From Escallonia rubra (Eukaryota; Streptophyta; Magnoliopsida; Escalloniales; Escalloniaceae), in contig JAVXUO010002897.1 of assembly GCA_033065855.1 (NCBI GenBank), forward strand, positions 124,001 to 188,000: a stretch of DNA of 64,000 bases, given 5' to 3'. The translations under genes were made by a program, and so were the position numbers. The stretch's first letter is position 1, and each line of letters starts with the position of its first letter. Positions 30,931 through 63,534 of the stretch are shown here, one piece after another. The notes beneath the pieces were generated by a model that ran no database searches, was not told the DNA's origin, and saw nothing but the letters and a program-made list of their open reading frames with translations.

Positions 30931-31679
30931 AACAACTAAAAGCAATATGGTACTAAGATGGTCCCTGTGCATAGGTAAAAGCCAACTTGACATAAAAACT
31001 TAGAAACATATCATTTACATCCTTGAGCTTGAAGGGTACTTACACTCTAAGACTGACATTTGGAAAAATATGATCTGCGTTTCTTGACCACACGAAATAC
31101 AAATTGTATTAATATTCTCAATAAGTTAACTATAAACCCTTGATCTGTATGTTATATCTCAGTTGTCCAGACAAATTCGATGATAAAAAAGCAAACCTAA
31201 AGAATCTTATCAAAGATCCAACCCGCCACCTCCACCACTACCCACAGCAACCCCATCTCACCCTGCCATCATTACTCCCACCGGTCAATTGTCCCTTGAT
31301 CCACCACTACCCACCGTACACCATCTCACTGTTGCCACAACTCATTGCTACCCGATCATGTATACTTCCATCGTCATTATGTCAACCACGCCATGTCGTA
31401 ACTTGATTGTCTTAGTGTGCTAGCAATTTTTGGTAGCGGGTGTTGAGGGCCTATGTGTGTGCGCGTGCGCGCTTGTGTGCGTGTGTAATTATGTAGTTCA
31501 GTGGTAGGTTTGGTGAAGGTGTGTGGGCGGGTTTGGTGACTGGTGGGGTCATGATGGTGGGTTCAATAAAACTGGTGGTGGCAGTCAAATATGAGATGTG
31601 GTGGACTTGGAGTGGCAGGGTGGTAGGTTCGGTAGAATGGTGGTGGTGGGTGAGATGTGAGATGTGGGTTGGGGGTGGT
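30931..31679. other. Unassigned DNA with C/A-rich and G/T-rich patches
   Basis: 31220-31400 is CCACCACTACCCAC-rich; 31440-31490 is a GT/GC microsatellite; 31500-31680 is GGTGG-rich. Spurious frames only. Confidence 0.45.
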
Positions 31680-31860
31680 GGGCATGGATTGTGGTTTGAT
31701 AGGCAGTGGTCTTGGTTGGATTCGTAGTGGTTGTTGGCTGTGAAGGTTTGTGGACTTGGGGTGGTGTAGTCTGTTTTCTATTTTAAAAAAATATAAATCC
31801 GTCACATCAACCACAACTAGTTATTTGTGTCACGGGATCCTAACATCATATCAATCTGAT
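31680..31860. repeat. 181-bp direct repeat X, first copy
   Basis: Identical or nearly so to 32555-32735. Starts GGGCATGGATTGTGG and ends ATCAATCTGAT. The 37 bp before its last few bases are also copied inverted immediately afterwards. Confidence 0.9.
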
Positions 31861-31893
31861 ATGATGTTAGGATCCCGTGACACAAATAACTAG
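31817..31893. repeat. Perfect palindrome, 37-bp arms, 3-nt loop
   Basis: The left arm 31817-31853 (CTAGTTATTTGTGTCACGGG...) is the exact reverse complement of 31857-31893. The right arm ends at the left terminus of the hAT-like element. Confidence 0.95.
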
Positions 31894-32552: not shown

Positions 32553-32554
32553 AT

Positions 32555-32735
32555 GGGCATGGATTGTGGTTTGATAGGCAGTGGTCTTGGTTGGATTCGT
32601 AGTGGTTGTTGGCTGTGAAGGTTTGTGGACTTGGGGTGGTGTAGTCTGTTTTCTATTTTAAAAAAATATAAATCCGTCACATCAACCACAACTAGTTATT
32701 TGTGTCACGGGATCCTAACATCATATCAATCTGAT
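32555..32735. repeat. 181-bp direct repeat X, second copy
   Basis: Continues into ATATATTTGTTTCAC, which looks like the original right flank; the first copy keeps the original left flank. Confidence 0.9.
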
Positions 32736-32740
32736 ATATA

Positions 32741-37317: not shown

Positions 37318-37602
37318 AGTCCCGTCGGTATATACATGATATCTTGCTTTGCATGCAAAACAACAACATGACCACTAACATTTGAAATGAACTTTTGTTA
37401 CTACCCTTAACGTAAAATTAGACGTGACCACGAAATTTGCGTTGCATCTGGTCCATTTGGGGTGAGCGTTTGAACCGACTAAGTCGAAACGACCAAACAG
37501 ACCATTGATCTCACTTGAAGAAACAAGGATTTCTCGTTTGATTTCGTGCAGACACACACGTTGGACTCGCCCCTCTGTTCCTGGTTGGTCTGACGTTTTG
37601 GC

Positions 37603-37610
37603 TATATAAA
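37603..37610 (+). promoter_or_regulatory. TATA box of TauE/SafE copy A
   Basis: TATATAAA, 94 bp before the ATG at 37704. Copy B has TATAAATA at the same distance. Confidence 0.6.
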
Positions 37611-37703
37611 TAAATAGGCAACAACGAGAGCTTATGTGAACACGAAAGCGTTTGAGACGCAGAGATTGAAAGACGACGAAGTTTAAGAGAGTATTTAACT
37701 TGG

Positions 37704-40700: not shown

Positions 40701-41897
40701 CATTTACAACTTATCGCGACTAAACCATTTTGAAAATGAATTAAAATTTTGGATTTGATTCAAGTGACTAAACAATACACCTTCGCTTTCTACTTCTTTC
40801 TTGTCAAGGGACCTTTCTGATGAGGGCATTTCCAAAGACCACAACAGAAGTGGCTCCGTCCTTGCCCTTTACTTTTCCATGAGCATTCTAGTGCCATGAC
40901 TGCTCCGTGTACTACTCCAGCCACCGTTATTCGATGGAAAATTATCTCAATTGCTATGGAGTGCATGCTGTCATTTCTAACTCCTGTGGTAGTTCAAGAA
41001 ACTAATATAAGATAGATACGATTAACTTTTTAGTCATAGCCATTTTTCTGTTTTTCCTGGGTGACCTGGAGGAGTACTAATCAGAGTTCCGATACCAACT
41101 AAAAGTTGTTTAATGGCAGATCTTTATACTCCCATTATCATAGTTTAAGCCCTAGAAGTATGTTTATATGTGGCCTTGAACCTCTTGATATACATTGTGC
41201 AGGTTTCAAGTGCCACGGCCACCTTTGCTATGATGTTCTCCTCATCAATGTCTGTCGTAGAATATTACCTTATAAAACGTTTTCCAGTTCCATATGGTGA
41301 GTGCTTTTCCCAACAGCAATTTTTCTCTAAGCTGGTGTTCCTTCCTTTCTTTCCTTCCCTGGAGAAGTAAGTTGATTGAAAAAGGTATTCATTAGTAGCG
41401 GCCTCACGGAAGGAAAAGTAATACTGATTTGGATTTAAAGAGGGAGTGAACTGCAATCGAGTTTCTGGTGAACTAAGAATAATTTAATGGATTTGGCAGC
41501 TCTCTACTTTCTTGCTTGGGCAACAGTTGCTGCTCTCATTGGGCAACATGTTGTGAGAAGACTGATCAATATCCTAGGAAGGGCATCCCTAATCATCTTC
41601 ATTCTGGCCTTTACTATCTTTGTGAGCGCAATCTCATTAGGTGAGCACCAACCTTCTTGATCAATTGGATTAGTGAATATATGATCACGTGAAGTTCTTG
41701 CCATTCCAGCATTCTGTTTCATACGCTGTTTGCTACATTGAATATCTGCCTGCCAGTGCCAATTTGACGTTCTGTTTCTTACACTGTTTCCATCTTCGAT
41801 TTGTATGGCAGGTGGCGTTGGCATTTCAAACATGATCGTGAAGATTGAGGATCACGATTACATGGGTTTCGAGAACCTCTGCAAGTACGAGGCTTAA
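37704..41897 (+). pseudogene. Sulfite exporter TauE/SafE-family membrane protein, copy A (one premature stop)
   Basis: Twelve exons with GT-AG borders: 37704-37922, 38423-38582, 38849-39049, 39126-39190, 39430-39457, 39573-39664, 39731-39817, 39940-39990, 40180-40401, 41203-41296, 41500-41640, 41812-41897 (1446 nt, 481 codons plus stop). The order and motifs match Arabidopsis At2g25737-type proteins: an N-terminal hydrophobic signal/TM stretch (residues ~15-30), then HVWPEMQFGW, the first TauE repeat [33 protein letters not shown], the second repeat [40 protein letters not shown], and the C-terminus MGFENLCKYEA. The family transports organosulfonates, sulfite or other anions; plant substrates are mostly unknown. 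A TAG at 40297-40299 (codon 341, exon 9) interrupts it just before the second TauE motif, in a small cluster of changes relative to B. Translation is predicted to lose the C-terminal third. Confidence 0.8.
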
Positions 41898-42572
41898 CAT
41901 CTCAAGCACTTCTGCAACTTATTGGCACCGAATCATGCTCCTCAGGGTTGCTAGAGTTGGCCTTGAGCTTGTGCCATTTCTTGAGACATTATTTGAACTC
42001 TTTGCCACTGAAAATTTATTATGTGTCCCTCACACTGGCACCATCAAAGACGCTTCTGCTCCGAGCAGACACAGGAAATAGAAATGAGAATCTATTTTTT
42101 TGCAGAAATATTTGTGGAAAATTATGTTAATTTCTTTCGTTTCTCCTCTTGTAGCTTGAGTTACAAAATAGAAGTCCCTACCTACAGCATCTCCCATGCT
42201 AGGTTATAGTAATACTGTGGTCCATTACTGGATGCCAATCTTCTGTGAGCATCAGGATTCTTAATTTCTCTCAGGACTGTGGTATGTAGTGCATTCATGG
42301 GCACATGGCTAACAGTAGGCCAGGGTTGCATCCTTACCAGGAGCATTTATCATCACCTCCAATATATTTATTGAAGATTCAAAACCAAGTGGGCCTGTTT
42401 GAGTCCACTCGTAGCCATAATGTAACCTTACCCACCCCACATCCCAACCCCACGCCTAACTTGATGCACGTTTTGCAAATGAAAGAATTTTTTTTTGAAG
42501 ATTCTGAATTGTCATTATAATTGAAGTACATGTTCCCACGACACTGCAGATTGGCAAAGACATTATCCTATT

Positions 42573-45750: not shown

Positions 45751-46656
45751 GATGAACTCACTCATGAGAGAATAGATGAGAATGAGAGAAGCTATGAATA
45801 TGGGAATAGAGCTCAACATAATTGAAGCTATGGAAAGTAAGAGTCTGAATGACATACATACATACATAATTACCACTGGTAATAGCTTTGTTGTACTAGC
45901 TAGGGAAGAATGGAATTCTGATATGACTGCACATGGATTTATTAGTCCAAAGAGGAGAAATCATAGCTCTTCAAGGAACAAAATGACCAGGCAAAGTGGG
46001 AATATGAGCATAACACATGCTTAAGTCATGACCACGATAGCAAGTTGGAATATTAGGGGGCTTAATGACCCTGTGAGACAAAGAGATGTCAAGAAAACTA
46101 TTGAGAGAACATAAAGTGGATTTGATGGGATTGTTGGAAACAAGAGTTAGGGAAGAAAATATTCAAAAAATTACAGCAAAATGGAGCAATGACTGGCATT
46201 TTGACTATAGTGTAAATAATAAAGGTGCATCTAGGCTGTGGATATTATGGAATGGAAAAATAATTCAGATAACAATGATGAGTAAATCTAGCCAACATCT
46301 TACTGCAAAGGTAACTATGCAAAACTCTGGAATTTCCTTTTTTCTAACACTAGTATATGCAAACAATGAGGGAGACAAGAGAAGAACCCTTTGGAGGAAT
46401 CTTTCACATGATGCTCATTCTATTGGAAGTAACCCTTGGATTGTTGCTAGGGACTTCAATATAATAAGAAATGGTCAGGAAAAGTATGGTGGCAGTGGGA
46501 CTAATAGAAGGGACATGGAAGAGTTTAACAAGTGCTTATTTGATACACACCTTAAGGACATGCCTACTTTAGGCTTGTTCTATACTTGGTGTAACAATAG
46601 AAAAGATGGATTCATCATGTGTAAATTGGATAGAGCTCTTCAAATTAAAGGTTGGA

Positions 46657-46844
46657 TGGATGTTTTTCCTTACACTAAAGTTCAAGCTTTAGAACCTGGC
46701 ATCTCTGATCATGCATTACTATTGATTAATATCATGCAAGGCGAGTCTTATGGATGTTTTTCCTTAGACTAAAGTTCAAGCTTTAGAACCTGGAATCTCT
46801 GATCATGCATTGTTAATGATTAACATCATGCAAGGTGAGTCTTA
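46657..46844 (+). repeat. 94-bp tandem duplication in the second LINE
   Basis: Copies at 46657-46750 and 46751-46844, beginning TGGATGTTTTTCCTTA and ending GAGTCTTA, with a few differences. Ninety-four is not a multiple of three, so the frame is lost. Confidence 0.9.
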
Positions 46845-48375
46845 TGGGAAAAGGCCCTTCAAATTTTACAACTGTTGCATGAACCATCATCAATTTGATT
46901 CCATTCTAAAAACTATTTGGCTAAAAAGGGTTGAGGGGGATGCTTGTAAACAATTGAGAACCAAGTTGAAGGCTCTGAAACAATTTTGAAGAAGTTTAAT
47001 AAAGAAAGTTATAGCAATATATCAGCTAGAACAAGTGAGAAATACAGGGGACTACAGAAGATACAAGCTCAAATGTTCTAGAACCATGACTCAACTATGA
47101 TACAAAAGGATAAGGAGGTGCATAGGCAATACTACCACCTGACTATGGCAGATGAGGCATACTATTATCAGAAGGCAAGAATCAAGAATATTAAGTTAGG
47201 TGACAACTGACAACAACACTGCTTATTTTCACAAAAGAATGAAAGTGCATATAGCATACAATATAGTAAATGCTATACAAAATGGGGATGTAGTGCAAGT
47301 CAATGGAACCAAAGAAGTACATGAAATGGCAATAAAACACTTCTCTGAATTCTTGGGAAGTCTAGTCACATCACAGCCCCAGACGAAAAGAAGAATATAG
47401 AAGGTACTCACAAAACATGTATCACACGTGGAACAACTAATGTTGGGTGCTCCTATTACAGAGACTAAAGTGAAAGAGGCTATGTATGCTATCAAAGCTA
47501 ATAAAGCCCCTGGGCCTGATGGGTTCAGTGTTGAGTTCTTTTAGAAGAATTGGAATATTGTAGGCAATATAATAATAGATGCAGTATTGGAAATGTTGAA
47601 CGGAAATAAGGACATCATGTTTTTTAATAGCACTATGTTATCACTAATACCTAAGATCCAAAATCCCACCACAATGAAGGACTTCAGGCCAATAGCCTGC
47701 TACAATGTGATTTACAAGTGTGTATCTAAGATCCTATGTGCTACGATCAATAAGGTATTGCCTTACCTAATCAGTGGGAACCTGTAAGCCTTTGTGGCAA
47801 ACAAGAGTATAACAGATAATGTGTTATTAATGCAAGAACTTGTGAAGAATTATCTCAGACAAAGGGGGTCACCAAAATGTATTATGAAGATTGAACTACA
47901 AAACGCTTATGACTCTATAGGGTGTGATTTCCTTAAAATTGTGATGGAGACTATGCAATTCCCTCCCCTCTTTGTGGTCTGGATAATGCAATGTGTGTCA
48001 AATGCCAGATTTTCAATTACTCTCAATGGGAATGTCGAAGGATACTTTGCCAGCTATAAAGGATTAAGGCAGGGAGATCTAATCTCCCCATATCTATTCT
48101 TATTAGTAATGGAGGTCGTTTCATGTCTAATAGGGACTTATGCCACACATCAAGACTTAGAATATCATCCAAGGTGCAAAGAATTACAGATTCACCACTT
48201 GTGTTTTACAGATGATCTCTACCTAATTTGCCAAGCTGGAGAAGCTACTGTCACTTTGATCAAACAAGCATTGGTAGAGTTTCAGGTACTATTTGGTCTA
48301 TCTCCTAACTTGGCAAAAAGCTCCATGTCCTTATCAGGTATTAGCACAAACACTGCTGAGAATTTGGCTAGGATA

Positions 48376-48423
48376 GTAGGCATATCAGTAGGCATATCAG
48401 TAGGCATATCAGTAGGCATATCA
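48376..48423 (+). repeat. Four 12-bp tandem units within the RT domain
   Basis: GTAGGCATATCA four times, plus a partial fifth, coding for repeated Gly-Ile-Ser-Val in frame. In-frame expansion just after the RT palm. Confidence 0.95.
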
Positions 48424-49901
48424 GTAGGCAAATTTCCAGTTACCTACCTTGGTGTCCCTTTCATCTCAACAAAACTGCATTTTAAAGATTGTGAGGGACT
48501 GGTGGAAAGGATTACCAAGAAAATTTCTAGTTGGACCACCAAAGTCCTCTCATATGGTGGGAGATTGCAACTTGCAGTATCAGTTTTGTGTAGCATGTAA
48601 GTTTACTGGTGTTCCATCTTTATTCTGCCTAAGAAAATTATTAGACAAATTGAGAAGAAAATTAGAGCCTTCATATGGCATGGCCATGATGTAAGGTGTA
48701 CTGGAGCAAAAGTAAGCAGGAAAGATGTGTGTCTTCCAAAAGAGAAGAAGGATTGGGCTTTAAAAGGCCGGATGAATGTAATAAAGCAACAATAGAAAAA
48801 CATCTATGGAATCTAGCACATAAGAAGAATTCATTATGGGTAAAATGGTGTCATGTGTACAAAATTAAAGAGCAACACATGTGGACTTTCAAACCTCCAG
48901 TGGTATTATCTTGGACATGGCACAAAATATTGAAGTGAGAGACCAATTATGTGAGTTCATCCAATATAGAGTTGCCAATGGTAGGAACACTTGGCTATGG
49001 TTAGACAGATGGATAAATGGAAAATCTATAGTGGAACGATTTGGGTTGAGACCTATATATGACTCTGGATTAGCATATCAAACCAAAGTCTGTGATATTA
49101 TCCAAGGAAATGAGTGGAAAATGCTGCTGAATATATCAAATGAGCTAAGAGTTATTAATTCCTTGGTGAAGTCACTTCCTAAGCCTAACACTGATGTTCC
49201 TGATAAAGTCATCTGGACCTTGAATTCTGTTCATCAATTTACAATAAAAAGTGCATGGGAAGGGATCAGAACTAGAACAACAAAAGATACAGTATGGAAG
49301 TTGGTATGGTTCTCTGGGAACATTCCAAAATTCTCATTCATATTGTGGATTTTATGCCAAGGTGGGCTAAGGACAAAAGTAAAGCTCAAGGCTTGGAATG
49401 TGATCCAAGATGATCATTGTGTGTTATGCACTCAGGGTACAGAACATGAAAACCATATGTTTGGTCAGTGTCCCTTTGCAAAAGAAATCTGGTTCCTAGC
49501 GTTTGACATATTAAAGGTAACAGTTCCACTATTATCATGGAACCAACTGAGTGCTCAGTTAGCAAAAGAATTTAGAGGCAAAAGCTTGGAAAATTGATAG
49601 TGGCTGCAGTGGTCTATGAGATTTGGCAGGAGAGAAACACAAGAATTTTTGGCAAGAAGCAAACTAATGCTCAGGACTTATAGTTGGAAAAAGATTGGAA
49701 ACATAACTAGAAATAAGGGATTATGCCAGGCCTGGGGTATTAATGAAAGTTTGATAGATGTAGGGGGGACGTCATGAATAATGTACATGGATATAGCCTT
49801 AAGTAGATGATCAGAAAATGTAAATAATTGATGAATTGTATATGTTTGCACATGAATGAATAAAAGGACCTTTTGACCAACAAAAAAAAATGATGACCTA
49901 A

Positions 49902-50072
49902 CATGGTATATAAGTATTAGACTTTGGTTTGAGAAAGTTGAGCTCAATTGTTTTTGCTTGCATATTTGGTCTCCCTTGTAATAGTGCAATTTGAACTATG
50001 TTGTTTTTGTACAGTTGATTTTTCTCTCCATGTGCAATTAGGATGATCTACATGGGGGATATTGAAATATGA
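49902..50072. other. Short spacer before the (TA)n tract
   Basis: No gene. Contains CTACATGGGGGATATTG near 50050, polypurine-tract-like, but no LTR start follows. Confidence 0.4.
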
Positions 50073-50109
50073 TATGATATATATATATATATATATATAT
50101 AGATATATA
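50073..50109. repeat. (TA)n microsatellite, left flank of the palindrome
   Basis: GATATGATATATATAT... with one interruption; the matching tract at 54236-54285 flanks the other end. Confidence 0.9.
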
Positions 50110-50149
50110 GCGGCCCGCGCCACACCCCCCGGCGGATCAAAAAAATTTC

Positions 50150-50450
50150 CCCACCCAGCCGCCTCCCTTACACGCGGTTGGGTACTGTACCATTTTCTCG
50201 TGGGCCCACCACAAAAAGCACTCATTTTTTCTTTTGAGCCCAACCGCATGTAAGAGAAGCGGTTGGGCATGATTATTTTTTTGACATGGGCCCACCACAA
50301 AAAACCACTCCACCCAACCGCTTCTCTTACACGCGGTTGGGACAAATTTTTTTTTGCCCAACCGCTTCTAAAAGAAGCGGTTGGTAACCCTTTTTTTTTT
50401 AACAATTTTTTTAAAAAACCAACCGCATATAAAAGAAGCGGTTGGTGGCT
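50150..50450. repeat. Hairpin-motif cluster, left arm
   Basis: Several short palindromes built from CCCAACCGC and GCGGTTGGG separated by about 10 nt (for example CTTCTCTTACAC or ATGTAAGAGAA), spaced 40-90 bp apart. Each could fold alone. Mirror cluster at about 53890-54195. Confidence 0.85.
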
Positions 50451-50529
50451 TTTTTTTGGGTAGCTCCCACACAAAAATTTTCAAATTTTTTGGTTGGCTG
50501 ACACAAAAAAAAAAAAATTCGAGCCAAGG

Positions 50530-50890
50530 CTGCCACGTGGCCTCCCCCGCGACTGCCACGTGGCAAAACCGCGTGAAGGGGCGCCGGTTGGGCGATGGCC
50601 CTGCCACGTGGCCTCCCCCGCGCCTGCCACGTGGCCCAACCGCGTGAAGGGACGCCGGTTGGTGCCACGTGGCCTCGCCCGCGCCTGCCACGTGGCCCAA
50701 CCGCGTGAAGGGACGCCGGTTGGTGCGATGCCCTGCCGCGTGGCCTCCACGCGCCTGCCACGTGGCCCAACGCGGGAAGGTGCGCCGGTTGGTACGATGG
50801 CCGTGCCACGTGGCCTCCCCCGCGCCTGCCACGTGGCCCAACCGCGTGAAGGGGCCCCGCGGGTTGCCCTCTCCTTCTGCCACGTGGCGC
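50530..50890. repeat. G-box palindrome array, left arm
   Basis: About ten copies of GCCACGTGGC (perfect G-box/ABRE-like CACGTGGC) alternate with CCTCCCCCGCGCCT and CCAACCGCGTGAAGGG phrases, period roughly 60 bp. One copy reads GCCGCGTGGC. Confidence 0.9.
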
Positions 50891-51029
50891 CCCCCCCCCC
50901 ACGCGCCTGATGCTCCCCGTGACTGTCCTTCCCTTCCCGTGACTATCCTTTTGCAGAGTCTTTTTTTTCGGGCCAATTTTTTTTTTCTGCAGAGACCCTC
51001 TTTTTTCTTCTCTTTTCCTTTTTCTTCTC

Positions 51030-51039
51030 TATTTATAAT
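51030..51039 (+). promoter_or_regulatory. Inward TATA-like promoter, left arm
   Basis: TATTTATAAT between pyrimidine-rich stretches. Downstream, CAACAAGTAAGTATT at 51184-51198 has a full GTAAGT donor. Together they resemble a core promoter plus a short non-coding first exon. The function is inferred. Confidence 0.4.
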
Positions 51040-51286
51040 CCCCTCCCCCCAACCATTCTTCTCCACATTTCTGCTCTGCTCCGCACTTTTTCTCCACAAA
51101 CCAAAAAATTTTAGCGCTAGAAGAAGATCGGTGGATAATCGCTAGAAGATCGGTAGATTTTTCTTCAAATACATCAAGTCACAACAAGTAAGTATTTTGA
51201 ATTTCCTTATAATTCAATGTTAGGTTTATACAAATCAGCGTATTACATTTATAGCGATTCAAAATAGCGTATTACATTACATTTAT

Positions 51287-52320
51287 AGACAGCTTTTTCA
51301 CGGATTTATAAAAAATAGCTAGAGCGAGATTTTGCCAAAGTACAAAAAAGAGACCCTAGTTATTCTGAAAGGATCTGTATCAGGTAAAAATTTCAGATTT
51401 TTCCAAGTACTGTAGAGGGGCTAACTGATACGGGGAACCGTGTACCTTCGCAGTCTAATTTAAAATACCAAGCTAGCGCGATTTCGCGCGAAACTTTTAC
51501 GAGAACCCTAGGATGTTGGGAAGTTCCATTCCCCAGGATTTCGCGCCATTCCGGAGCCGTTTGCTATTTTTTTGCCCGAACGGCCCTTTCAGCGCTCGCC
51601 CTTTAATTAGACAGCTTTTTCACGGATTTATAAAAAATAGCTAGAGCGAGAGTTTGCCAAAGTCAAAAACAGGGACCCTAGTTATTCTGAAATGATCTGT
51701 ATCAGGTAAAAATTTCAGATTTTTCCAAGCACTGTAGAGGGGCTAACTGCTACGGGGAACCGTGTACCTTCGCAGTCTAATTTAAAATACCAAGCTAGCG
51801 CGATTTCGCGCGAAACTTTTACGAGAACCCTAGGATGTTGGGAAGTTCCATTACCCCGGATTTCGCGCCATTCCGGAGCCGTTTGCTATTTTTTTGCCCG
51901 AACGGCCCTTTCAGCGCTCGCCCTTTAATTAGACAGCTTTTTCACGGATTTATAAAAAATATCTAGAGCGAGATTTCGCCAAAGTGAAAAACAGGGACCC
52001 TAGTTATTATGAAATGATCTGTATCAGGTAAAAATTTCAGATTTTTCCAAGCACTGTAGAGGGGCTAACTGCTACGGGGAACCGTGTACCTTCGCAGTCT
52101 AATTTAAAATACCAAGCTAGCGCGATTTCGCGCGAAACTTTTACGAGAACCCTAGGATGTTGGGAAGTTCCATTCCCCAGGATTTCGCGCCATTCCGGAG
52201 CCGTTTGCTATTTTTTTGCCCGAACGGCCCTTTCAGCGCTCGCCCTTTAATTAGACAGCTTTTTCACGGATTTATAAAAAATAGCTAGAGCGAGATTTGG
52301 CCAAAGTGCAAAACAGGGTT
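51287..52320. repeat. 322-bp tandem units, left of the apex
   Basis: Three full units at 51287-51608, 51609-51930 and 51931-52252, then a partial one to about 52320. Each starts AGACAGCTTTTTCACGG and includes GCGCGATTTCGCGCGAAAC. The units differ by only a few bases. Confidence 0.95.
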
Positions 52321-52342
52321 CTCGCAAAACAGAGATTTCGCC

Positions 52343-52939
52343 AATGGCTCCGGAATGGCGCGAAATCCTGGGGAATGGAACTTCCCAACATCCTAGGGTT
52401 CTCGTAAAAGTTTCGCGCGAAATCGCGCTAGCTTGGTATTTTAAATTAGACTGCGAAGGTACACGGTTCCCCGTAGCAGTTAGCCCCTCTACAGTGCTTG
52501 GAAAAATCTGAAATTTTTACCTGATACAGATCATTTCAGAATAACTAGGGTCCCTGTTTTTCACTTTGGCGAAATCTCGCTCTAGCTATTTTTTATAAAT
52601 CCGTGAAAAAGCTGTCTAATTAAAGGGCGAGCGCTGAAAGGGCCGTTCGGGCAAAAAAATAGCAAACGGCTCCGGAATGGCGCGAAATCCTGGGGAATGG
52701 AACTTCCCAACATCCTAGGGTTCTCGTAAAAGTTTCGCGCGAAATCGCGCTAGCTTGGTATTTTAAATTAGACTGCGAAGGTACACGGTTCCCCGTATCA
52801 GTTAGCCCCTCTACAGTGCTTGGAAAAATCTGAAATTTTTACCTGATACAGATCCTTTCAGAATAACTAGGGTCTCTTTTTTGTACTTTGGCAAAATCTT
52901 GCTCTAGCTATTTTTTATAAATCCGTGAAAAAGCTGTCT
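52343..52939. repeat. 322-bp units, inverted, right of the apex
   Basis: A partial unit (52343-52617) and one full unit (52618-52939) in reverse orientation. The right side thus has about two fewer units than the left. Confidence 0.95.
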
Positions 52940-53186
52940 ATAAATGTAATGTAATACGCTATTTTGAATCGCTATAAATGTAATACGCTGATTTGTATAA
53001 ACCTAACATTGAATTATAAGGAAATTCAAAATACTTACTTGTTGTGACTTGATGTATTTGAAGAAAAATCTACCGATCTTCTAGCGATTATCCACCGATC
53101 TTCTTCTAGCGCTAAAATTTTTTGGTTTGTGGAGAAAAAGTGCGGAGCAGAGCAGAAATGTGGAGAAGAATGGTTGGGGGGAGGGG

Positions 53187-53196
53187 ATTATAAATA
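53187..53196 (-). promoter_or_regulatory. Inward TATA-like promoter, right arm
   Basis: Mirror of the left-arm site: TATTTATAAT on the minus strand, with the GTAAGT donor-like site at 53033-53038 (minus). Confidence 0.4.
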
Positions 53197-53324
53197 GAGA
53201 AGAAAAAAGAGGGTCTCTGCAGAAAAAAAAATTTGGCGCGAAAAAAAAGACTCTGCAAAAGGACAGTCACGGGGAGGGAAGGACAGAGTCATGGGGAGCA
53301 CCAGGCGCGTGGGGAGTGGCGCCA

Positions 53325-53812
53325 CGTGGCAGAAGGAGAGGGCAACCCGCGGGGACCCTTCACGCGGTTGGGCCACGTGGCAGGCGCGGGGGAGGCCACG
53401 TGGCACGGCCATCGTACCAACCGGCGCACCTTCCTGCGTTGGGCCACGTGGCAAGCGCGGGCGAGGCCACGTGGCACCAACCGGCGTCCCTTCACGCGGT
53501 TGGGCCACGTGGCAGGCGCGGGGGAGGCCACGTGGCACGGCCATCGTACCAACCGGCGCACCTTCCCGCGTTGGGCCACGTGGCAGGCGCGTGGAGGCCA
53601 CGCGGCAGGGCATCGCACCAACCGGCGTCCCTTCACGCGGTTGGGCCACGTGGCAGGCGCGGGCGAGGCCACGTGGCACCAACCGGCGTCCCTTCACGCG
53701 GTTGGGCCACGTGGCAGGCGCGGGGGAGGCCACGTGGCAGGGCCATCGCCCAACCGGCGCCCCTTCACGCGGTTTTGCCACGTGGCAGTCGCGGGGGAGG
53801 CCACGTGGCAGC
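53325..53812. repeat. G-box palindrome array, right arm
   Basis: Inverted counterpart of 50530-50890, longer by roughly 120 bp because of additional repeat units. GCCACGTGGC recurs throughout; long frames across it are repeat artefacts. Confidence 0.9.
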
Positions 53813-53889
53813 CTTGGCTCGAATTTTTTTTTTTTTTTTTGTGTCAGCCAATCAAAAAATTTGAAAATTTTTGTGTGGGAGCCACCCAA

Positions 53890-54195
53890 AAAAAAAGCCA
53901 CCAACCGCTTCTTTTATATGCGGTTGGTTTTTTAAAAAAATTGTTAAAAAAAAAGGGTTACCAACCGCTTCTTTTAGAAGCGGTTGGGCAAAAAAAAATT
54001 TGTCCCAACCGCGTGTAAGAGAAGCGGTTGGGTGGAGTGGTTTTTTGTGGTGGGCCCATGTCAAAAAAATAATCATGCCCAACCGCTTCTCTTACATGCG
54101 GTTGGGCTCAAAAGAAAAAATGAGTGCTTTTTGTGGTGGGCCCACGAGAAAATGGTACAGTACCCAACCGCGTGTAAGAGAAGCGGTTGGGTGGA
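53890..54195. repeat. Hairpin-motif cluster, right arm
   Basis: Mirror of the left cluster, with the same CCAACCGC...GCGGTTGG palindromes and almost no changes. Confidence 0.85.
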
Positions 54196-54233
54196 GAAAA
54201 TTTTTTTATCCACCGGTGGGTGTGGATCGGGCC

Positions 54234-54235
<2 letters not shown>

Positions 54236-54285
<50 letters not shown>
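54236..54285. repeat. (TA)n microsatellite, right flank of the palindrome
   Basis: About 25 TA units directly after the right terminus GGGCCCC. Confidence 0.95.
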
Positions 54286-54290
<5 letters not shown>

Positions 54291-54984
54291 AGTCAATTCT
54301 TAAAACATTTAAATTATAGTGCAAATGGTAGTTTTTTTTTTGGGCAATAGGAGAATGACATTGAAGTAAATGAGTTTTGTTACATGTTTCCTTGAGTTTT
54401 TTTTCCTTAAATAATATTATTTTAATACTTAATTACCTATCTACTCTGTTTTGAAACTTAATTACCCGCATACTACGCTTTTGTAAATCACGTTTTAGAA
54501 CACGACTTTAAAGAAGAAAACGTGATTTAAAACCATGTTTTCATTTTCTTTTTTCATTTTTAGCGTGATTTCTCAAAATCTAAGAAAACTGAATAAAAGA
54601 AGAAATTATAGGAAACAAATAGCGCGCGTTTGGGACTGTGTGTTCTGAACCCATTTTACCTTTTCCCCTCCTTTCTCCTTTCTCCTTCCTTCTTTTTTTT
54701 TCCTCAGCCCTTGCTCAAGGCTGGGCTACACCAATTATAGTTGCACTAGGTGAGTTTTCTTCTTTCTCGTTTCTTTCTTCCTCTGTGTCCTCTTTTAACA
54801 TCATTGCTGGGTATTCCAATTTTGATATTAGGGCAAAATTTCAAACCCATTGGATAATTTACTGTTGGGATTAGGGCAAAATTTGAGAGGTCCAGTCAAG
54901 CAATATATGTAGTTCCACCCAATTTAGCAACGTGAGTCCTCCTCTTTTTTTTTTTTTGGGCACCAATTTCACAAATTGTTACTG
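54286..54984. other. Unassigned DNA before the third tandem unit
   Basis: AT- and T-rich. A frame at 54638 starts with a hydrophobic stretch (LLSPFSFLLFFSSALAQG) and then meets a CTAGGTGAGTTTTC donor-like site, but no second exon or homology is recognised. Confidence 0.35.
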
Positions 54985-56371
54985 TCAAACCATGTTCCTC
55001 GTCCAAGACGAGGCATGCATGGTGTAGTGAAGTATGAACCAATGCCAGAATTATGGCGGTGCAACACAGTACATGGGGCATGATAGAGTACATGGCTGTA
55101 TAAGTGGCAAGGTGCATAGCCACGACGAGAAATGTACGGTGGCAAGGGGCACGCTTAATGGAGATGACGAGGGGTCACGATCATTGAGTCTTGTACGGGA
55201 CACATGATACAACAACATCGCATGGGCACAACTGAGAGAAGCAATGTCGGGGCACGTATAGCAGGAGGCAATGCCCAGGCACGTTCAACCTTCATGGCGT
55301 TTGAGCATAGCATGAGCACAACTTTAAAGGCACGTAACGTGGAGATAGCACTCGAACGTTGTTAGGCTCATCACCCTTTTTTGGCTATAGTTGAAACATG
55401 TCCTTAATATAACAATTTAACAAAAGCGTTTCTAGTTATTTGACGTTTATCAATCTAAAAAAAGTAAAACTGCATAAATGGAGCTATCCACTGTCCAATT
55501 AAGAAGGTTATAGCTGTAAATTACTAATATAAGAGTTATACAGTCCCATCGATATATACCTAATATCTTGCTTTGCATGCAAAACAACAACAGGACCACT
55601 AACATATGGAATGAACTTTTGTTACAACCCTTAACGTAAAATTAGATGTGACCACGGAATTTGCGTTGCAACTGGTCCATTTGGGGTGAGCATTTGAACC
55701 TACTAAGTCGAAATGACCAAATTGGTCGATCACAAACCGATTAGAGAAACAATCAATTTATTTTTTATTTTTTTTCAAACCAATATTTGGTTCGGTTGGT
55801 TTGAATTTTTTTTTTTGTTTGACATTGTTCTAAACCGAAGCGAAGCTATATATGTCCAATTAAAATATAGGAATTTTAATCTAATCCTAATTTCATAAGG
55901 TAGTCACAATACATAAATAAATACTACCCTAATTTCAATATGTAGGCTGCAATCAACTTGTAATTATATACATTACAAACGCCAAATAGTCAATAATTAG
56001 GTCTAAACAAGTTCAGCAATTACTTCTAGGCCAAAGCAGTCATTCTATTCAAACCAATCCGTTTGATCTATCCGAACCATTTAAACCGAGTCGTTTAACT
56101 ACGGTGTGATTTTAATAAGCTGGTGGTGATTAGTTAAGTTTGATATTTAATTTCTAAACTGAACCAGCCGAATCATGCTCACCCAGATATGCTCGGAAGC
56201 ACTCTCGCAAAAAATCATATATAAGGGCGCACAAAATCATGAATCCAATGACGTAGATCTGACATGATGCCGAGTCCACTCGCCCATGCTGGAGCTCAGA
56301 AGAAATATTTAGAAGGGAAAAATCACTCTGATCCTTTTGACTGGCCACAACTCGCAGGTACAAATTTGGAG
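54985..56371. repeat. Truncated third tandem unit (upstream part only)
   Basis: 54985-55715 matches 35980-37480 in A (without A's Mutator-like insertion) and 57660-58325 in B. 56230-56365 matches the proximal promoter of B (58330-58480). It then passes directly into the GGCATTATGTG start of unit B, with no gene body. A GGTTCGGTTGG-rich stretch at about 55720-56170 interrupts it. Confidence 0.75.
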
Positions 56372-58688
56372 CTTTCTGGCATTATGTGGAGAGGGGGAGA
56401 GAGAGAGAGAGAAGAAAAGAATCCAAATCATAGTTAAAAAGTAGAGTGAATTCAATTTTAAAAGTAAAAATTGTAAAGTCCACATTGCAAGTTTTGAGAG
56501 TGTCCAAGTAAGCGGTGACTGAACAACATTTTCTAAGCTTCAACCTTCGCGCGCGCGCGCGTGTAAAATTAGATTTCAAAAATTGTACAAATACCTTTCA
56601 CATGTCAAAATTTCTCAATTACTTATAGGAAATAACTATTACTTCTGCATTAACATTCCACCTCTTTTCTTTTAATATATATGGTTGTTGGAAGCGTACA
56701 TTTTTTTTTAATAGAAAGAAACTCAATGATGTCAAGCAAGTGGGTTTGTAGTGTACGTAGAGGTGACACAAATGATACATTCTGAACCAGTTGCTATGTG
56801 TACAAGTGTGCAGGAAAGAATAAGGGTGAAATAAGAGCAAAGACCAATACTTCCCAGATAGAGCCTGAGGAGTGGCCACTAGTGCAAGCGGGAGGCGAGG
56901 GCGCAGAGTGAATATGGATTGATAGTCAGTAGTCTAATACTAAGATCTACATGTCAAGGTCCAGAGTCAGGGTCCAGAGTCAAGATCTAAAGTCAAGGTC
57001 TAAATCCACGAGTTTTCTCTCTCAAGAATCCTTTAGTTATGAAGGTTTAGAGTGAGAAAATGAGATTTTGAAATTGAATTCAAACTGTCCAAAATGAATT
57101 TCAAAGTCCATTACTGTTAGGCAAATGAGACGCCATGTCGTCAAGTGGCATGTGGCACTCCATGGGAGTGACACCTTACCGGGGGGCCACAAAGTCGATG
57201 CTCCACGAACTCTTAGTTGATAAGAAATTCGCTTGTCCTATCTTGCATAGCTTTGCTATGTTTTTCCAGGAATACTAACTCACACAACATCGGTTGGCTA
57301 GAGAACGCTCTTGATCTAGCCATCATTTTTATGCCCTTACTAAGTCCCCCCACATGGGACGTCAAGAGACGCTGAGAATCAGACAATGGTAGCGGAGTTC
57401 TGATGCCTCACTATGAGACAGACTAGAAGCGATGCACTCTCGAGACCTATTCCTATATCAGAGCAACCCAAGGGTCATGATCTTGGGATGGATGATCATA
57501 GATTATGTGAGTGCGACAATGTCACAACTTAAGGGTCCTAAGTGTCACATTAGTCGCCCAATGTGGATATAATGTCTCAAATAACAAACCAATCCCACTC
57601 TGAAGGATTCTCATGTCGAAGCACTGCAAGCTAAGCCCTTTGGATGTCGTCTGCTCTGAAGTGCGAGTCAAACCATGTTCCTCGTTCAAGACGAGGCGTG
57701 CATGGTGTAGTGAAGTACACCAATGCCAAAATTGTGGCGGTGCAACAGAATACATGGGGCATGACAGAGTACATGGCTGTATAAGTGGCAAGGTGCATAG
57801 CCACGACGAGAAATGTGCGCGGTGGCAAGGGGCACGCTTAATGGAGATGACGCGGGGGCACGATCATTGAGTCTTGTACGGGGCACATGATACGATGACA
57901 ACGCATGGGCACAACTGGAGAGAAGCAATGTCGGGGCACGTATATCAGGAGGTAGTGCCCAGGCACGTTCAACCGTCATGGCATTTGAGCGTAGCATGAG
58001 CACAACGTTAGGGGCACGTAACTTGGAGCTAGCACTGGAACGTTGTTAGGCTCATCACCCTTTTTTGGTTGTAGTTAAAACATTTCCTTAATATAACAAT
58101 TTAACAAAAGCCTTTCTAGTTATTTGACGTTTATCAATCTAAAAGAAGTAAATAGAGTTATCCACTGTCTAATAAAGAAGGTTATACCTGTAAATTTTTA
58201 ATATAAAAGTTATACAGTCCTGTCGATATATACCTGATATCTTGCTTTGCATGCAAAATCACGACATGAGCACTAACTAATGGAATGAAGTTTTGTTACT
58301 ACCCTTATTAACGATAAAATTAGATGTGACGCAAAATCATGAATCAATTGACGTGGATCTGACATGACGCCGAGTCCACTCGCGTTAGAGCATGCCGGAG
58401 CTCAGAAGCAATATTTAAAAAGGGAAAAACCACTCTACTCCTTTTGACTGGCCACACAGCTCGCACTTACAAATTTGGAGCTTTCTTGTCCTCCCAAAAT
58501 CCTTTCATTTGCTCTCAAATTTTTCGCGGCCAACTTCTGACCGACGCAAAAGATCAACTACTTCCTTCGCCTCTCTGCGCAGCCAAACAGACCTTTGATC
58601 TCACTTGAAGAAACAAGGATTTCTCGTTTGATTTCGTGCAAACACATTGGCCTCGCCCTTCTGTTCCTGGTTGGTGTGAAGTTTTGGC

Positions 58689-58696
58689 TATAAATA
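58689..58696 (+). promoter_or_regulatory. TATA box of TauE/SafE copy B
   Basis: TATAAATA, 94 bp before the ATG at 58790. The promoter further upstream (58330-58560) differs from that of A. Confidence 0.6.
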
Positions 58697-58789
58697 AATA
58701 GGCAACAACGAGTGCTTATTTGAACAGGAAAGAATTTGAGACGCAGAGTTTGAAAGTCGACCAAGTTTAAGAGAATTTATTTAACTTGG

Positions 58790-61700
58790 ATGGCGGGAAT
58801 TGCGGCGAAATGGAGATCGATACCGACAATGGTTTTGTGGAGCTTTTTCTTGGCTTCTGTTTTGGTTTCGGCAGAGAGAAGATTGATAAAACAGGACACT
58901 GTTACGGTTCCCACGACTAGAGAGGATGAACCCGAATCGAGTTTGTTGGTTCAGTTTGCGAATTTCTTGTGGCAGCCAAACAGATTGGGCTACACACATG
59001 TTTGGCCGGTAAGTCCATACATGGATCTAATCTGTGCCATCTTTTTAATTCCTCACGAATTTGCTCTGGGTGGTTTTGTGATATCTTACATACAAAATGG
59101 TGTGAGTGGCTGCACTTGGATCTTGTCATTTTCAAAGCGAAAAAAGGACACCAAGGGATCATAATCTGGATGTGTTTCTAATACAACTCGATTCACCCAA
59201 ACTTGTTCAAACACATCCCTATTCACTTTTACCACAAAGGGTAGCATGATTTTCTAGGTAAAGTTTTCGAGTGCAAGTCTTAATTTGTCTATCAGCAAGT
59301 ACAAAGTAGCTGGCCAAATTTTACGTAAAAATATAAAATGACGCATCAAACAAGTTACGCGGGTTTGATGCATAGAATGTGCTTGTAGCAGATATTGGTT
59401 TTATCTGCTCTTTTGGTTGGCCGAGTTGTTAATATTTGAGTTATGGGTGCCTGTAGTTGAAAATTTTAAATCTGGTGAATTTTGTGCGGAAACTGGTTTG
59501 CAGGAAATGCAATTTGGATGGAAAATTATTGTTGGTACCATTATTGGGTTCTTGGGAGCGGCTTTTGGAAGTGTTGGAGGTGTTGGCGGTGGAGGCATAT
59601 TTGTTCCGATGCTTACCCTTATTATTGGGTTTGATGCAAAATCAGCGACTGCTATTTCGAAGTGTAAGAGATGTTGCTACCCAAATAACTGTTGTTCCTT
59701 ATAAAGTACCTTGTTTAGATTTACGAACTTCTCTGTGTTCCCTCCTCCCTAATTTGGTTGTATGACGCAAGGGCGGAAGAAAACATTTAAAGGTTTTTGT
59801 TTTGGCCATGGTGGCCTGTCTTTGCCTGAAATTTTTCTATATTAAATTTTAGAGCCATTGGATGGCAAGATTTCTTTTTGTTTTTAGTTAACTTTTAGTT
59901 GTACATTATGTCTGGCTTTCTATTATGGCTAACAATTTCTATCCTTTACACATTGTATTTGTTTTGTCAGGTATGATTATGGGTGCGGCAGCCTCAACTG
60001 TGTACTATGATCTTAAGTTGAGGTATCCCACGCTTGATATGCCTATCATTGACTATGACTTGGCGCTGCTCATACAACCAATGCTCATGCTTGGCCTTAG
60101 GATTGGAGTTGCGTTCAATGTGATTTTTGCTGACTGGATGGTCACAGTTCTGCTAATTATTCTCTGTATGGGTAATGAGCCATTGTATCAGCATTTTTGC
60201 TAAACATTCTACGCCGTAACGCTTACATTTCACACGATTGTTTGCAGGCACATCGACCAAAGCCTTCTTTTGAGGTGTTGAGACATGGAATAAGGAAACA
60301 ATTATGAAAAAGGTTGTCGTGAGTTTTGTGCTTTTTACCTGTTAAATATAAATATGGTGGAATTGAAAGCTCTAGAGTATATTCAGTAGCCTATCCGTTT
60401 AAATCTGCTGAAATGGGTCATTCTACATATAAGATGGACCTTTTCTGCAGGAAATATTATGACAATAAAGGAATGCTTTTTATACACGTGGTTGCTATGT
60501 ACACCAGGTTTACTTGATATAGTCGTTGATTCTGAAAATTGAAATTTTCTCTTTCAGGAGGCTGCTCAGCGCCTGGAGGCAAACGGTGGGTTGAGTCACT
60601 CTGCCCTCTATTTACCAAGTCTTAAAGAGGCTACGTAGTTTTCCTAATTATTTATTATTTTTGTGTGAACTAAGGGTATATAAATGTCCTATGTTATCAG
60701 CATCCGGGAAGGAAGAAGCAGAATACAAACTTCTTCCAGGTGGCCCCAGTAATGGAACTGGAAACAGGACCAACAACTCTGCAGAACCAGAGGTGAGAAT
60801 GATCTGAGTAGCCTATTTTCCTTTCAAAATCCGGATGCCTGACATTTTAGTTTATCAGGTCTCGGTTCTCGTTACTGTTTGCTGGAAAGAATTTGGGCTT
60901 CTTGTTTTTGTTTGGGTTGCATTTCTTGCGCTGCAGATCATTAAGGTTCTCATTCTCACCCATTGGAGTGTCCTCCTGGAGTTATATTTCATTAAGCATT
61001 TCACATAGCAATTTCTCTGACCTTTGTAAGAATATGCTGACTCTCTGTGTTTTTTGTCGGAAAACAGAACTATACTTCTACTTGCTCAGCAGCATATTGG
61101 GTAGTGAACCTGTTGCAGGTACCATCTAATGATATGATCATACGCAAAGATAGCAAGACATTTTGACTTCACATACGTCGGAATGTTCGGCTTCTCTATG
61201 GATTTAGGTATTTTGGTTTAAACTTTAATATGTCACGTACTAGCATCGTCAGAATGAACTTCAAGGTTGCTGAATAGACCTGTTTTCAATCCCTTCACCT
61301 CGTGTAGGTTCCAGTTTCTTTTGGAGTATCTGGTTATGAGGCGATTAGCTTGTACAAGGGAAAGAGAGTAATTTCTTCCAAGGGAACTGACGACTCCAAT
61401 CTTCGAGTGCACCAGCTGATTCTTTATTGCTCCTGTGGTGTTCTGGCTGGTATGGTTGGGGGGCTGCTTGGTCTTGGTGGAGGATTTATCATGGGTCCGC
61501 TATTTTTGGAGCTGGGAGTCCCTCCTCAGGTGAGTTTGTGCTTCTTCAAAAATAAACTATGGAGGTGGCAGGTTATTGTTTTCCTTTCATTTGCTAGTCA
61601 GTTGGTGTTTTCCACGGAGGTAAGAAACTAGAGGCCTAGCAAGAGGAAAAAATAAAAAACAATTAGGGGAGAGGAGAGGGAGCAGAAGGGGCACAAAGGC

Positions 61701-63071
61701 CGAATAGTTGGCCCCAAGTTATTGTTAATAGAGATTGAGCTGACCCCCCTGAGATTTCGATCAATGTTGGGACCCCTTAAAATACATTTGTCCGAAAATT
61801 CTGTGGTTTTGTCTTTTGCCATGTACAACTTTCAGATTGGACTCGTCTGAGAGTTAAAAGACATTTACAACTTATCGTGACTAAACCATTTTGCAAATGA
61901 ATTAAAAATTTTGGATTTGATTCAAGTGACTAAACAATACACCTTCGCTCTCTACTTCTTTCTTGTCAAGGGACCTTTCTGATGAGGGCATTTCCAAAGA
62001 CCACAACAGAAGTGGCTCCGTCCTTGTCCAGGCCCGTGCCCTTTACTTTTCCATGCGCATTCTAGTGCCATGACTGCTCAATGTACAACTCCAGCCACCG
62101 TTATTCGATGGAAAATTATCTCAATTGCTATGGAGTGCATGCTGTCATTTCTAACTCCTGTGGTAGTTCAAGAAACTAATATCAGATAGATGCGATTAAC
62201 TTTTTACTCATAGCCATTTTTCTGTTTTTCCTGGGTGACCTGGAGGATTACTAATCAGAATTCCTATACCAACTAAAAGTTGGTTAATGGCAGATCTTTA
62301 TACTCCCATTTTCATATTTTAAGCCCTAGAAGTATGTTTATATGTGGCGTTGAACCTCTTGATATACGTTGTGCAGGTTTCAAGTGCCACGGCCACCTTT
62401 GCTATGATGTTCTCCTCATCAATGTCTGTCGTAGAATATTACCTTATAAAACGTTTTCCAGTTCCATATGGTGAGTGCTTTTCCCAACAGCAATTTTTCT
62501 CTAAGCTGGTGTTCCTTCCTTTCTTTCCTTCCCTGGAGAAGTAAGTTGATTGAAAAAGGTATTCATTAGTAGCGGCCTCACGGAAGGAAAAGTAATACTG
62601 ATTTGGATTTAAAGAGGGAGTGAACTGCAATCGAGTTTCTGGTGAACTAAGAAAAATTTAATGGATTTGGCAGCTCTCTACTTTCTTGCTTGGGCAACAG
62701 TTGCTGCTTTCATTGGGCAACATGTTGTGAGAAGACTGATCAATATCCTAGGAAGGGCATCCCTGATCATCTTCATTCTGGCCTTTACTATCTTTGTGAG
62801 CGCAATCTCATTAGGTGAGCACCAACCTTCATGATCAATTGGATTAGTGAATATATGATCACGTGAAGTTCTTGCCATTCCAGCATTCTGTTTCATACGC
62901 TGTTTGCTACATTGAATATCTGCGTGCCAGTGCCAATTTGACGTTCTGTTTCTTACAGTGTTTCCATCTTCGATTTGTATGGCAGGTGGCGTTGGCATTT
63001 CAAACATGATCGTGAAGATTGAGGATCAAGATTACATGGGTTTCGAGAACCTCTGCAAGTACGAAGCTTAA
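58790..63071 (+). pseudogene. Sulfite exporter TauE/SafE-family membrane protein, copy B (one premature stop)
   Basis: Same 12-exon structure as A: 58790-59008, 59504-59663, 59971-60171, 60248-60312, 60558-60585, 60701-60792, 60859-60945, 61068-61118, 61308-61529, 62377-62470, 62674-62814, 62986-63071 (1446 nt). All splice borders are GT-AG and all exon lengths equal those of A. The second TauE repeat is intact ([20 protein letters not shown]). Exon 4 carries TGA at 60271-60273 (codon 202) where A has CGA, a CpG-type C-to-T change. Translation would stop after about the first TauE half. Exons 4 plus 5 total 93 nt, so joint skipping would keep frame and avoid the stop; this is only a possibility. 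Calling it a pseudogene assumes normal splicing and no assembly error. Confidence 0.8.
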
Positions 63072-63534
63072 CATGTCAAGCACTTCTGCAACTTATTGGC
63101 ACCGAAACATGCTCCTCAGGGTTGCTAGAGTTGGCCTTGAGCTTGTGCCATTTCTTGAGACATTATTTGAACTCTTTGCCACTGAAAATTTATTATGTGT
63201 CCCTCACACTGGCACCATCAAAGACGCTTCTGCTCCGAGCAGACACAGGAAATAGAAATGAGAATCTATTTTTTTGCAGAAATATTTGTGGAAAATTATG
63301 TTAATTTCTTTCGGTTCTCGTCTTGTAGCTTGAGTTACAAAATAAAATTCCCTACCTACAGCATCTCCCATGCTAGGTTATAGTAATAATGTGGTCCATT
63401 ACTGGATGCCAATCTTCTGTGAGCATCAGAATTCTTATTAATTTCTCTCAGGACTGTGGTATGTAGTGCATTCATGGGCACATGGCTAACGGTAGGCCAG
63501 GTTTGTTGCATCCTTACTACGAGCATTTATCATC

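What the first reader, a model, noticed from the sequence alone, without database searches (positions are those of the whole stretch)
50110..54235. A 4.1-kb near-perfect palindrome with layered internal architecture and no protein
The two halves are long inverted repeats meeting near 52330. Each half has the same ordered zones: short TIR, CCAACCGC hairpins, G-box array, TATA box, donor-like site, tandem 322-bp units. Large stretches of the arms are identical by eye. Long inverted repeats are unstable in genomes, so survival suggests recent origin or active conversion. Transcription from either end would make a long hairpin RNA, a natural small-RNA source. It may be an undescribed foldback transposon family or a rearranged TIR element.
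Basis: partly seen in the sequence, partly recalled or inferred. Interest (0 to 1): 0.88.

Follow-up and report, generated by a model that had tools for sequence, protein, structure and literature searches.

The report
Plant foldback transposon in TA repeat
A 4.1-kb stretch of what looks like a plant chromosome reads almost the same on both strands and is probably a transposon that lost its gene but kept two mirror-image, promoter-like ends; it is most likely a new family of a known kind, and it could make a hairpin RNA that silences its relatives.

Summary
Arms 50110-51886 and 52340-54235 are inverted copies: 98.2% identical over 1757 ungapped columns, 453 nt apart in the collinear register. 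Each carries, outside to inside: a tip, five CCAACCGC hairpins, a G-box array, a TATA box, an ATG-free leader, GTAAGT, and 322-bp tandem units. (TA)n abuts both ends. None of the 12 ORFs of 120 aa or more that overlap the palindrome reaches a Pfam cut-off. The flanks are unrelated and the arms differ, so a folded-read artefact is unlikely.

Best reading: a non-autonomous foldback-type TIR transposon, probably Mutator-like and (TA)n-targeting (compare MuTAnT, SaTar), reduced to two promoter-like ends. Plant MULEs in (TA)n, fly foldbacks with tandem units in long TIRs (Tetris), and E2F-type sites in plant transposons are in print, so I file it as a new member of a known kind. A Mu killer-like silencing role is plausible but untested. 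Superfamily is unproven: no transposase, no second copy, no readable target duplication, and the host genome is not held. Undepleted CpG (observed/expected 1.08, against about 0.65 in the rest of the window and 0.10 beside it) suggests recent arrival. The 19% divergence of the outer 57 bp is unexplained.

The parts
50077..50109 (.). Left flank: (TA)n microsatellite (imperfect) abutting the element
   Evidence: the element sits between the two longest of the five perfect TA/AT runs of 10 bp or more in the window (24 and 50 bp)
54236..54285 (.). Right flank: perfect (AT)25
50110..50166 (+). Left tip of the TIR, diverged (11 substitutions in 57 bp against the right tip); begins GCGG
54179..54235 (-). 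Right tip of the TIR; read outside-in begins GGGGCCCG
50154..50446 (+). Left subterminal array of five CCAACCGC/GCGGTTGG hairpins; GGGCCCAC boxes near 50200 and 50288
53900..54192 (-). Right subterminal array of five hairpins; GGGCCCAC boxes near 54050 and 54136
   Evidence: one of these five hairpins folded
50530..50895 (+). Left G-box array (GCCACGTGGC x10 in 61/71-bp units)
53302..53811 (-). Right G-box array (GCCACGTGGC x14; 132 bp longer than the left)
50889..51001 (+). Left diverged patch before the TATA box (C run; E2F-type site changed)
53209..53320 (-). Right counterpart, with the E2F-type TTTGGCGCGAAA at 53232-53243
51030..51039 (+). Left TATA box TATTTATAAT, pointing inward
53187..53196 (-). 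Right TATA box, pointing inward
51060..51187 (+). Left presumed untranslated leader (no ATG); start site inferred
51188..51193 (+). Left GTAAGT, presumed splice donor
   Evidence: not above chance on its own
53033..53038 (-). Right GTAAGT, presumed splice donor
51286..52318 (+). Left 322-bp tandem units (3.2 copies), with three E2F-type TTTSGCGC matches in each full unit (two of them overlapping)
52346..52940 (-). Right 322-bp tandem units (1.8 copies)
52319..52345 (.). Central junction: short filler with pieces of the unit in both orientations

Best explanation
A non-autonomous TIR DNA transposon of the foldback type, probably Mutator-like and targeted to (TA)n microsatellites. Shown: two long inverted arms with defined ends in (TA)n, the same ordered modules in each arm, no ORF that reaches a Pfam cut-off, and a short scrambled junction at the centre. 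Inferred: each arm is one end of a larger element. In it the tip and hairpin array would be transposase-binding sequence. The GGGCCCAC, G-box and E2F-type motifs with the TATA box would form a promoter active in dividing cells. The ATG-free leader and donor would be the first exon and start of the first intron of the lost transposase gene. The coding middle would have been lost by break repair with template switching, leaving two promoter-like ends head to head. The element moved as a substrate of a transposase made elsewhere and landed recently in a (TA)n tract. Because both promoters face inward, a transcript that crosses the centre folds into a long duplex. So it may secondarily feed siRNAs against its own family, in the manner proposed for maize Mu killer. 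My estimates: foldback TIR transposon about 0.8; Mutator superfamily about 0.6; real silencing role about 0.3.
For: Inverted arms whose ends coincide with (TA)n on both sides. The right end begins GGGG; MuTAnT MULEs carry variable terminal GGGG/CCCC, sit in (TA)n and are foldback-shaped (PMC4486113). [quoted passage not shown] Subterminal hairpins: 6 of the 10 were folded and all 6 beat their 200 shuffles. E2F-type TTTSGCGC: 3 matches (2 overlapping) in a single 322-bp unit, shuffle mean 0.05, 0 of 2000 as many; GGGCCCAC: 2 in the left hairpin zone, 2 of 2000 as many. MuDR TIRs are stated to carry promoters and cell-cycle enhancer motifs (PMC3310237). The leader has no ATG. The outermost 322-bp units match across arms (2 differences in 322) better than U1 matches U2 or U3 (10 in 322), so the array predates the arm duplication or the arms have been homogenised. 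CpG observed/expected is 1.08 inside, 0.64-0.66 in the rest and 0.097 in 46000-50050. Predicted folding of 51060-53155: -1650 kcal/mol against -526 to -548 for three mononucleotide shuffles, with 812 of 935 pairs between arms.
Against: No transposase, no second copy in the window, and no readable target site duplication: the 9-mers next to the ends are AGATATATA and ATATATATA (read), which says nothing inside a TA repeat. The termini share only GGGG with the MuTAnT search mask quoted in PMC4486113, and the left end begins GCGG. The MuTAnT authors call TAFT, Micron and MuTAnT unrelated families, although the SaTar authors place Micron in the MULEs; TAFT's superfamily was not seen. Arms of about 1.8 kb exceed the 100-500 bp given as typical for MULE TIRs (PMC3310237). 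The tips, expected to be the most constrained part, are the most diverged (11 of 57). An ATG-free leader arises in 275 of 2000 mononucleotide shuffles and GTAAGT in 121 of 300. E2F-type sites do not point to Mutator: they are amplified by hAT, PIF/Harbinger and MULE MITEs and Helitrons in Brassicaceae (PMC12595863 passages). No expression data.
Confidence: 0.65

Rival explanations
1. A foldback TIR transposon of another superfamily (hAT, CACTA, PIF/Harbinger, or a P-type like Galileo) that landed in a TA repeat.
For: Foldback structure may arise independently in several lineages (passage in PMC4079207). Subterminal motif arrays in both orientations are also a feature of CACTA and hAT elements (recalled). 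E2F-type sites occur in MITEs of several superfamilies (PMC12595863 passages). The target duplication that would tell the superfamilies apart is unreadable here.
Against: In the three papers on (TA)n- or microsatellite-associated plant families that I saw, the elements are assigned to MULEs (PMC4486113, PMC5907723, PMC8449440). The ends do not start CACTA or CAGGG (those motifs are recalled).
Confidence: 0.2
2. A Mu killer-like accident: one end of an autonomous element was duplicated in inverted orientation at this site by break repair, so the palindrome is a single-locus rearrangement that never transposed as such and acts as a dominant hairpin silencer of its family.
For: Both arms appear to be the same element end, and the centre holds short pieces of the unit in alternating orientation. 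Mu killer has two TIRs from the same end and a proposed hairpin RNA of about 4 kb (PMC3440606).
Against: Both outer ends abut (TA)n, as an inserted element would and a local rearrangement would have to explain. No transposase coding sequence is recognised, so a hairpin could only target leader, intron and promoter sequence.
Confidence: 0.15
3. Inverted duplication of a host gene promoter and leader, not a transposon.
For: TATA box, leader and donor resemble an ordinary plant promoter and first intron (recalled).
Against: Ends coincide with (TA)n on both sides; hairpin and G-box arrays form a symmetric unit; no similar sequence elsewhere in the 64 kb.
Confidence: 0.05
4. Assembly or library artefact (missed adapter, folded read).
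For: The arms are identical for stretches of up to 307 bp; the left tip has a dense run of differences.
Against: The 4-kb flanks show no similarity to each other on either strand. The arms differ by 31 substitutions, 7 gaps and array copy number. The palindrome ends at microsatellites and not at a read fold.
Confidence: 0.03

Closest known systems
MuTAnT / AutoMuTAnT (Medicago truncatula; PMC4486113, parts 1 and 2 of 4 read)
   Same: (TA)n flanks, terminal GGGG/CCCC of variable length, foldback arms made of modules, mostly non-autonomous
   Different: 90% are 200-300 bp (range to over 1.6 kb) with a mean TIR of 47 bp; the terminal mask shares only GGGG with this element; a 4873-bp autonomous relative was found there
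SaTar elements incl. Micron (guayule, rice; PMC5907723, passages read)
   Same: Non-autonomous MULEs at microsatellites, mainly (TA)n, many without target duplications
   Different: 380-1900 bp in the passages seen, TIRs 40-250 bp for the guayule families; no promoter or tandem-unit architecture in those passages
Tetris foldback transposon (Drosophila virilis; PMC4079207, passages read)
   Same: TIRs up to 1735 bp built of an outer flanking domain, then a variable number of tandem units (about 220 bp); no conserved ORFs
   Different: Insect, 8-10 bp target duplications; no TA targeting or promoter modules in the passages seen
Tm1 Mutator/Foldback family (Meloidogyne; PMC3169594, abstract, outline and section 9 read)
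   Same: Composite TIRs with repeat units whose number differs between the two ends of one element
   Different: Short (mostly 14 bp) units, 9 bp target duplications, members encoding a putative transposase known
Mu killer (maize; PMC3440606, part 1 of 5 read)
   Same: Two copies of one element end head to head, proposed long hairpin RNA, transposase gene only partial there and not recognised here
   Different: Mu killer includes mudrA coding sequence and was found by its silencing effect; here no coding part is recognised and no phenotype is known

Membership tests
Foldback-type TIR transposon | Long inverted arms with internal tandem repeats and little or no middle | tested here: met
   arms of about 1.8 kb, 322-bp and 61/71-bp arrays, middle made of the same units
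Foldback-type TIR transposon | Dispersed copies in the genome | not testable with these tools
   host genome not held; no other copy in the 64-kb window
(TA)n-targeting plant MULE (MuTAnT/SaTar-like) | Element flanked on both sides by (TA)n | tested here: met
(TA)n-targeting plant MULE (MuTAnT/SaTar-like) | Sequence similarity of termini to a described family | tested here: inconclusive
   Not met for MuTAnT: right end GGGGCCCGATCC against mask GGGGTTTGCTAGAACA, only GGGG shared. The letters of the SaTar, Micron, TAFT and pineapple families were not available
Mutator superfamily | 9-11 bp target site duplication | tested here: inconclusive
   flank 9-mers AGATATATA / ATATATATA lie in a TA repeat
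Mutator superfamily | mudrA-like transposase in the element or an autonomous relative | tested here: inconclusive
   none in the 12 ORFs of 120 aa or more that overlap the palindrome (two matches below cut-off, G7C_C and DUF7701); relatives could not be searched
Mutator superfamily | Long TIRs that carry promoters | tested here: inconclusive
   long arms with TATA box and motif clusters; promoter activity untested
Mu killer-like silencer | Inverted element ends able to form a long hairpin RNA | tested here: met
   (folding prediction only)
Mu killer-like silencer | siRNA production and trans silencing of an active relative | not testable with these tools
   no RNA or genetic data

The most novel reading that the evidence does not exclude
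A transposon-derived palindrome that has kept two head-to-head, cell-cycle-type promoters and first-intron sequence but no gene, is kept symmetric by arm-to-arm conversion, and works as a built-in hairpin silencer expressed in the same dividing cells as its autonomous relatives. It would be a self-regulating arm of a (TA)n-targeting transposon family.
Probability: 0.12. Interest if true: 0.75.

Novelty: new member of a known kind. Interest (0 to 1): 0.36.

Why it matters
If other copies exist, this would add a large foldback family with promoter-like arms to the (TA)n-targeting plant transposons. It would also give a sequence-defined test case for whether gene-less transposon ends with inward promoters generate siRNAs that control their own family, and for whether conversion keeps transposon palindromes symmetric.

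Tried and rejected
Exact-pattern scans for the 322-bp unit, leader and hairpin: viral contigs 3 scans, 0 matches; genome contigs 2 scans, hairpin and unit only, 0 matches. These are viral and prokaryotic collections, so this says little about plants. Whole-genome search of the host: no genome held. Rfam on the whole window at gathering scores: 0 matches; tRNAs: 0.

Papers: searches (281 papers, 20 listed; 1,812; one listed; 348; one listed; 14; 12 listed; 2; 6; 6; 4 listed). I opened eight papers, each named in the report with what I saw of it; the rest I know only from listings. One text search for six short strings of the element found 25 papers holding at least one; the 20 listed concern other subjects by title and abstract start.

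Rejected: ordinary satellite (ordered zones, defined ends; host copies not searched); coding element (12 of 12 ORFs of 120 aa or more overlapping the palindrome scanned; two matches below cut-off, G7C_C at E = 0.011 and DUF7701 at E = 0.016); assembly fold-back artefact (see rivals). The donor site as independent evidence was dropped because it is not above chance. The 28-nt tip is not a hairpin beyond chance (z 0.97). My first motif test (6 E2F-type matches) counted two tandem copies of the same unit; one search repeats it on one unit.
Full report
Observation. The palindrome is real in the sequence. Collinear alignment of 50110-51886 with the reverse complement of 52340-54235 gives 31 substitutions in 1757 ungapped columns and 7 gaps; blastn of the window against itself shows the same arms. 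Ordered zones recur in both arms: a tip next to (TA)n, five hairpins, a G-box array, a T- and C-rich stretch, TATTTATAAT, an ATG-free leader, GTAAGT, and 322-bp tandem units. Counts in the palindrome against the rest of the window are: GCCACGTGGC 24 against 0, the CCAACCGC..GCGGTTGG hairpin 9 exact against 0 (a tenth has three substitutions), GGGCCCAC boxes 4 against 0, TATTTATAAT 2 against 0, TTTSGCGC 17 against 2.

Statistics. In one 322-bp unit (51286-51607) TTTSGCGC matches 3 times, two of them overlapping (shuffle mean 0.05; 0 of 2000 shuffles as many; 2 of 2000 reach 2). In the left hairpin zone GGGCCCAC occurs twice (2 of 2000 as many). The earlier test on 50110-51929 gave 6 TTTSGCGC (0 of 300), 10 CACGTG (0 of 300) and 2 GGGCCCAC (2 of 300), but tandem copies inflate the first two. 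GTAAGT is not enriched (121 of 300). Six of the ten hairpins were folded and all six beat their 200 shuffles; the seventh sequence tested, the tip, did not. The names E2F, G-box and TATA box for these motifs are recalled, not from a call.

Symmetry and history. The divergence is uneven: 11 substitutions lie in the outer 57 bp and 8 in 50889-51001, while the other 1587 columns hold 12; 0 of 5000 random placements clustered as strongly. Seven of those 12 are in the U2 unit, which is probably not the true partner of the right inner unit: over the first 273 columns the right unit V2 differs from U3 at 2 positions and from U2 at 5 (read). That leaves 5 substitutions in 1308 columns. The outermost units match across arms (2 in 322) better than U1 matches U2 or U3 (10 in 322). 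So the array was built before the arms were duplicated, or the arms have been converted. The three left-tip substitutions that fall in the hairpin depart from the other hairpins when these are turned the same way, so at those sites the left arm is the changed one (read). The cause of that patch is unknown: conversion everywhere else, a tip from a diverged copy, and sequence error are all possible.

Centre. Around 52315-52353 lie short words of the unit in alternating orientation: AGGGTTCTCG in reverse, GAGATTTCGCCAA forward, then GGCTCCGG in reverse. I read this as filler from break repair with template switching; that is inference.

Age. CpG observed/expected is 1.08 in the palindrome, 0.097 in 46000-50050 (which includes a LINE-like reverse transcriptase), 0.75 in 54300-58500, 0.64-0.66 in the rest, and 0.64 in the other LINE-like stretch at 7.7-15.0 kb. 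The element has not suffered the CpG loss of its left neighbour, which fits a recent insertion. Lack of methylation, base composition or ongoing conversion could look the same.

Surroundings. Reverse transcriptases are at 11.7-12.5, 47.8-48.6 and 2.7-3.2 kb; that the first two are LINEs and the third Ty3-type is my reading of the ORFs. A gene is duplicated in direct orientation at 37.5-42.4 and 58.6-63.5 kb (94.6%). Of six ORFs tested in the second copy, two match TauE/SafE (E 3.3e-6 and 1.7e-6, both below the curated whole-protein cut-off); the first copy was not scanned for it. The host is probably a flowering plant by this content (inference); the species was not determined.

What it is. 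In the papers seen, plant families that prefer (TA)n or other microsatellites are assigned to Mutator-like elements: MuTAnT (PMC4486113 parts 1 and 2 of 4), SaTar including Micron (PMC5907723 passages), pineapple Ac-mMITEs (PMC8449440 passages). The MuTAnT authors nevertheless call TAFT and Micron unrelated to MuTAnT. MuTAnT copies carry variable terminal GGGG/CCCC; the right end here begins GGGG, the left GCGG. MuDR TIRs are said to hold promoters and cell-cycle enhancer motifs (PMC3310237 passages and introduction). E2F-type sites in plant transposons are known, in several superfamilies (PMC12595863 passages). Foldbacks with tandem units inside kilobase TIRs are known (Tetris, PMC4079207 passages), with unit number differing between ends (Tm1, PMC3169594 section 9). 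The anatomy therefore fits a non-autonomous foldback element, probably a MULE. Membership in Mutator is not proven: the target duplication cannot be read in a TA repeat, no transposase is present, and relatives could not be searched.

How it may work. Transposition would need a transposase in trans. Both promoter-like regions face inward, so a transcript that crosses the centre is self-complementary: folding 51060-53155 gives 812 of 935 pairs between arms. Mu killer, with two copies of one MuDR end and a proposed hairpin of about 4 kb, is the functional parallel (PMC3440606 part 1 of 5). Here a hairpin would carry leader, intron and, if started outside, promoter sequence, so it would suit transcriptional silencing of relatives more than mRNA cleavage (inference).

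Verdict. Observation confirmed, interpretation partly supported. It is a probable new family of a known kind, with a modestly interesting silencing hypothesis.

Noticed in passing
window 50110-50166: Left tip of the palindrome has 11 substitutions in 57 bp, 9 of them A/T on the right and G/C on the left, next to arms that are otherwise nearly identical. Cause unknown.
   Followed up: partly
window 46000-50050: LINE-bearing stretch with CpG observed/expected 0.097, the lowest of the 12 stretches measured: strong CpG loss.
   Followed up: partly
window 48375-48430: Perfect 12-bp tandem repeat (4.7 copies, 100% match) inside the reverse-transcriptase ORF at 47788-48600, giving a repeated ISVG stretch.
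   Followed up: no
window 37493-42354 and 58583-63534: Direct duplication (94.6%) of a gene with TauE/SafE-like exons in the second copy; the palindrome lies between the copies.
   Followed up: partly
window 31679-31893 and 32554-32737: Exact 184-bp direct repeat, and a 77-nt inverted repeat (31817-31893, 96%) overlapping it; possibly another small mobile element.
   Followed up: no
window 19691-20023: GC-rich tandem array of CCGGCGG-type units with long open frames on both strands.
   Followed up: no
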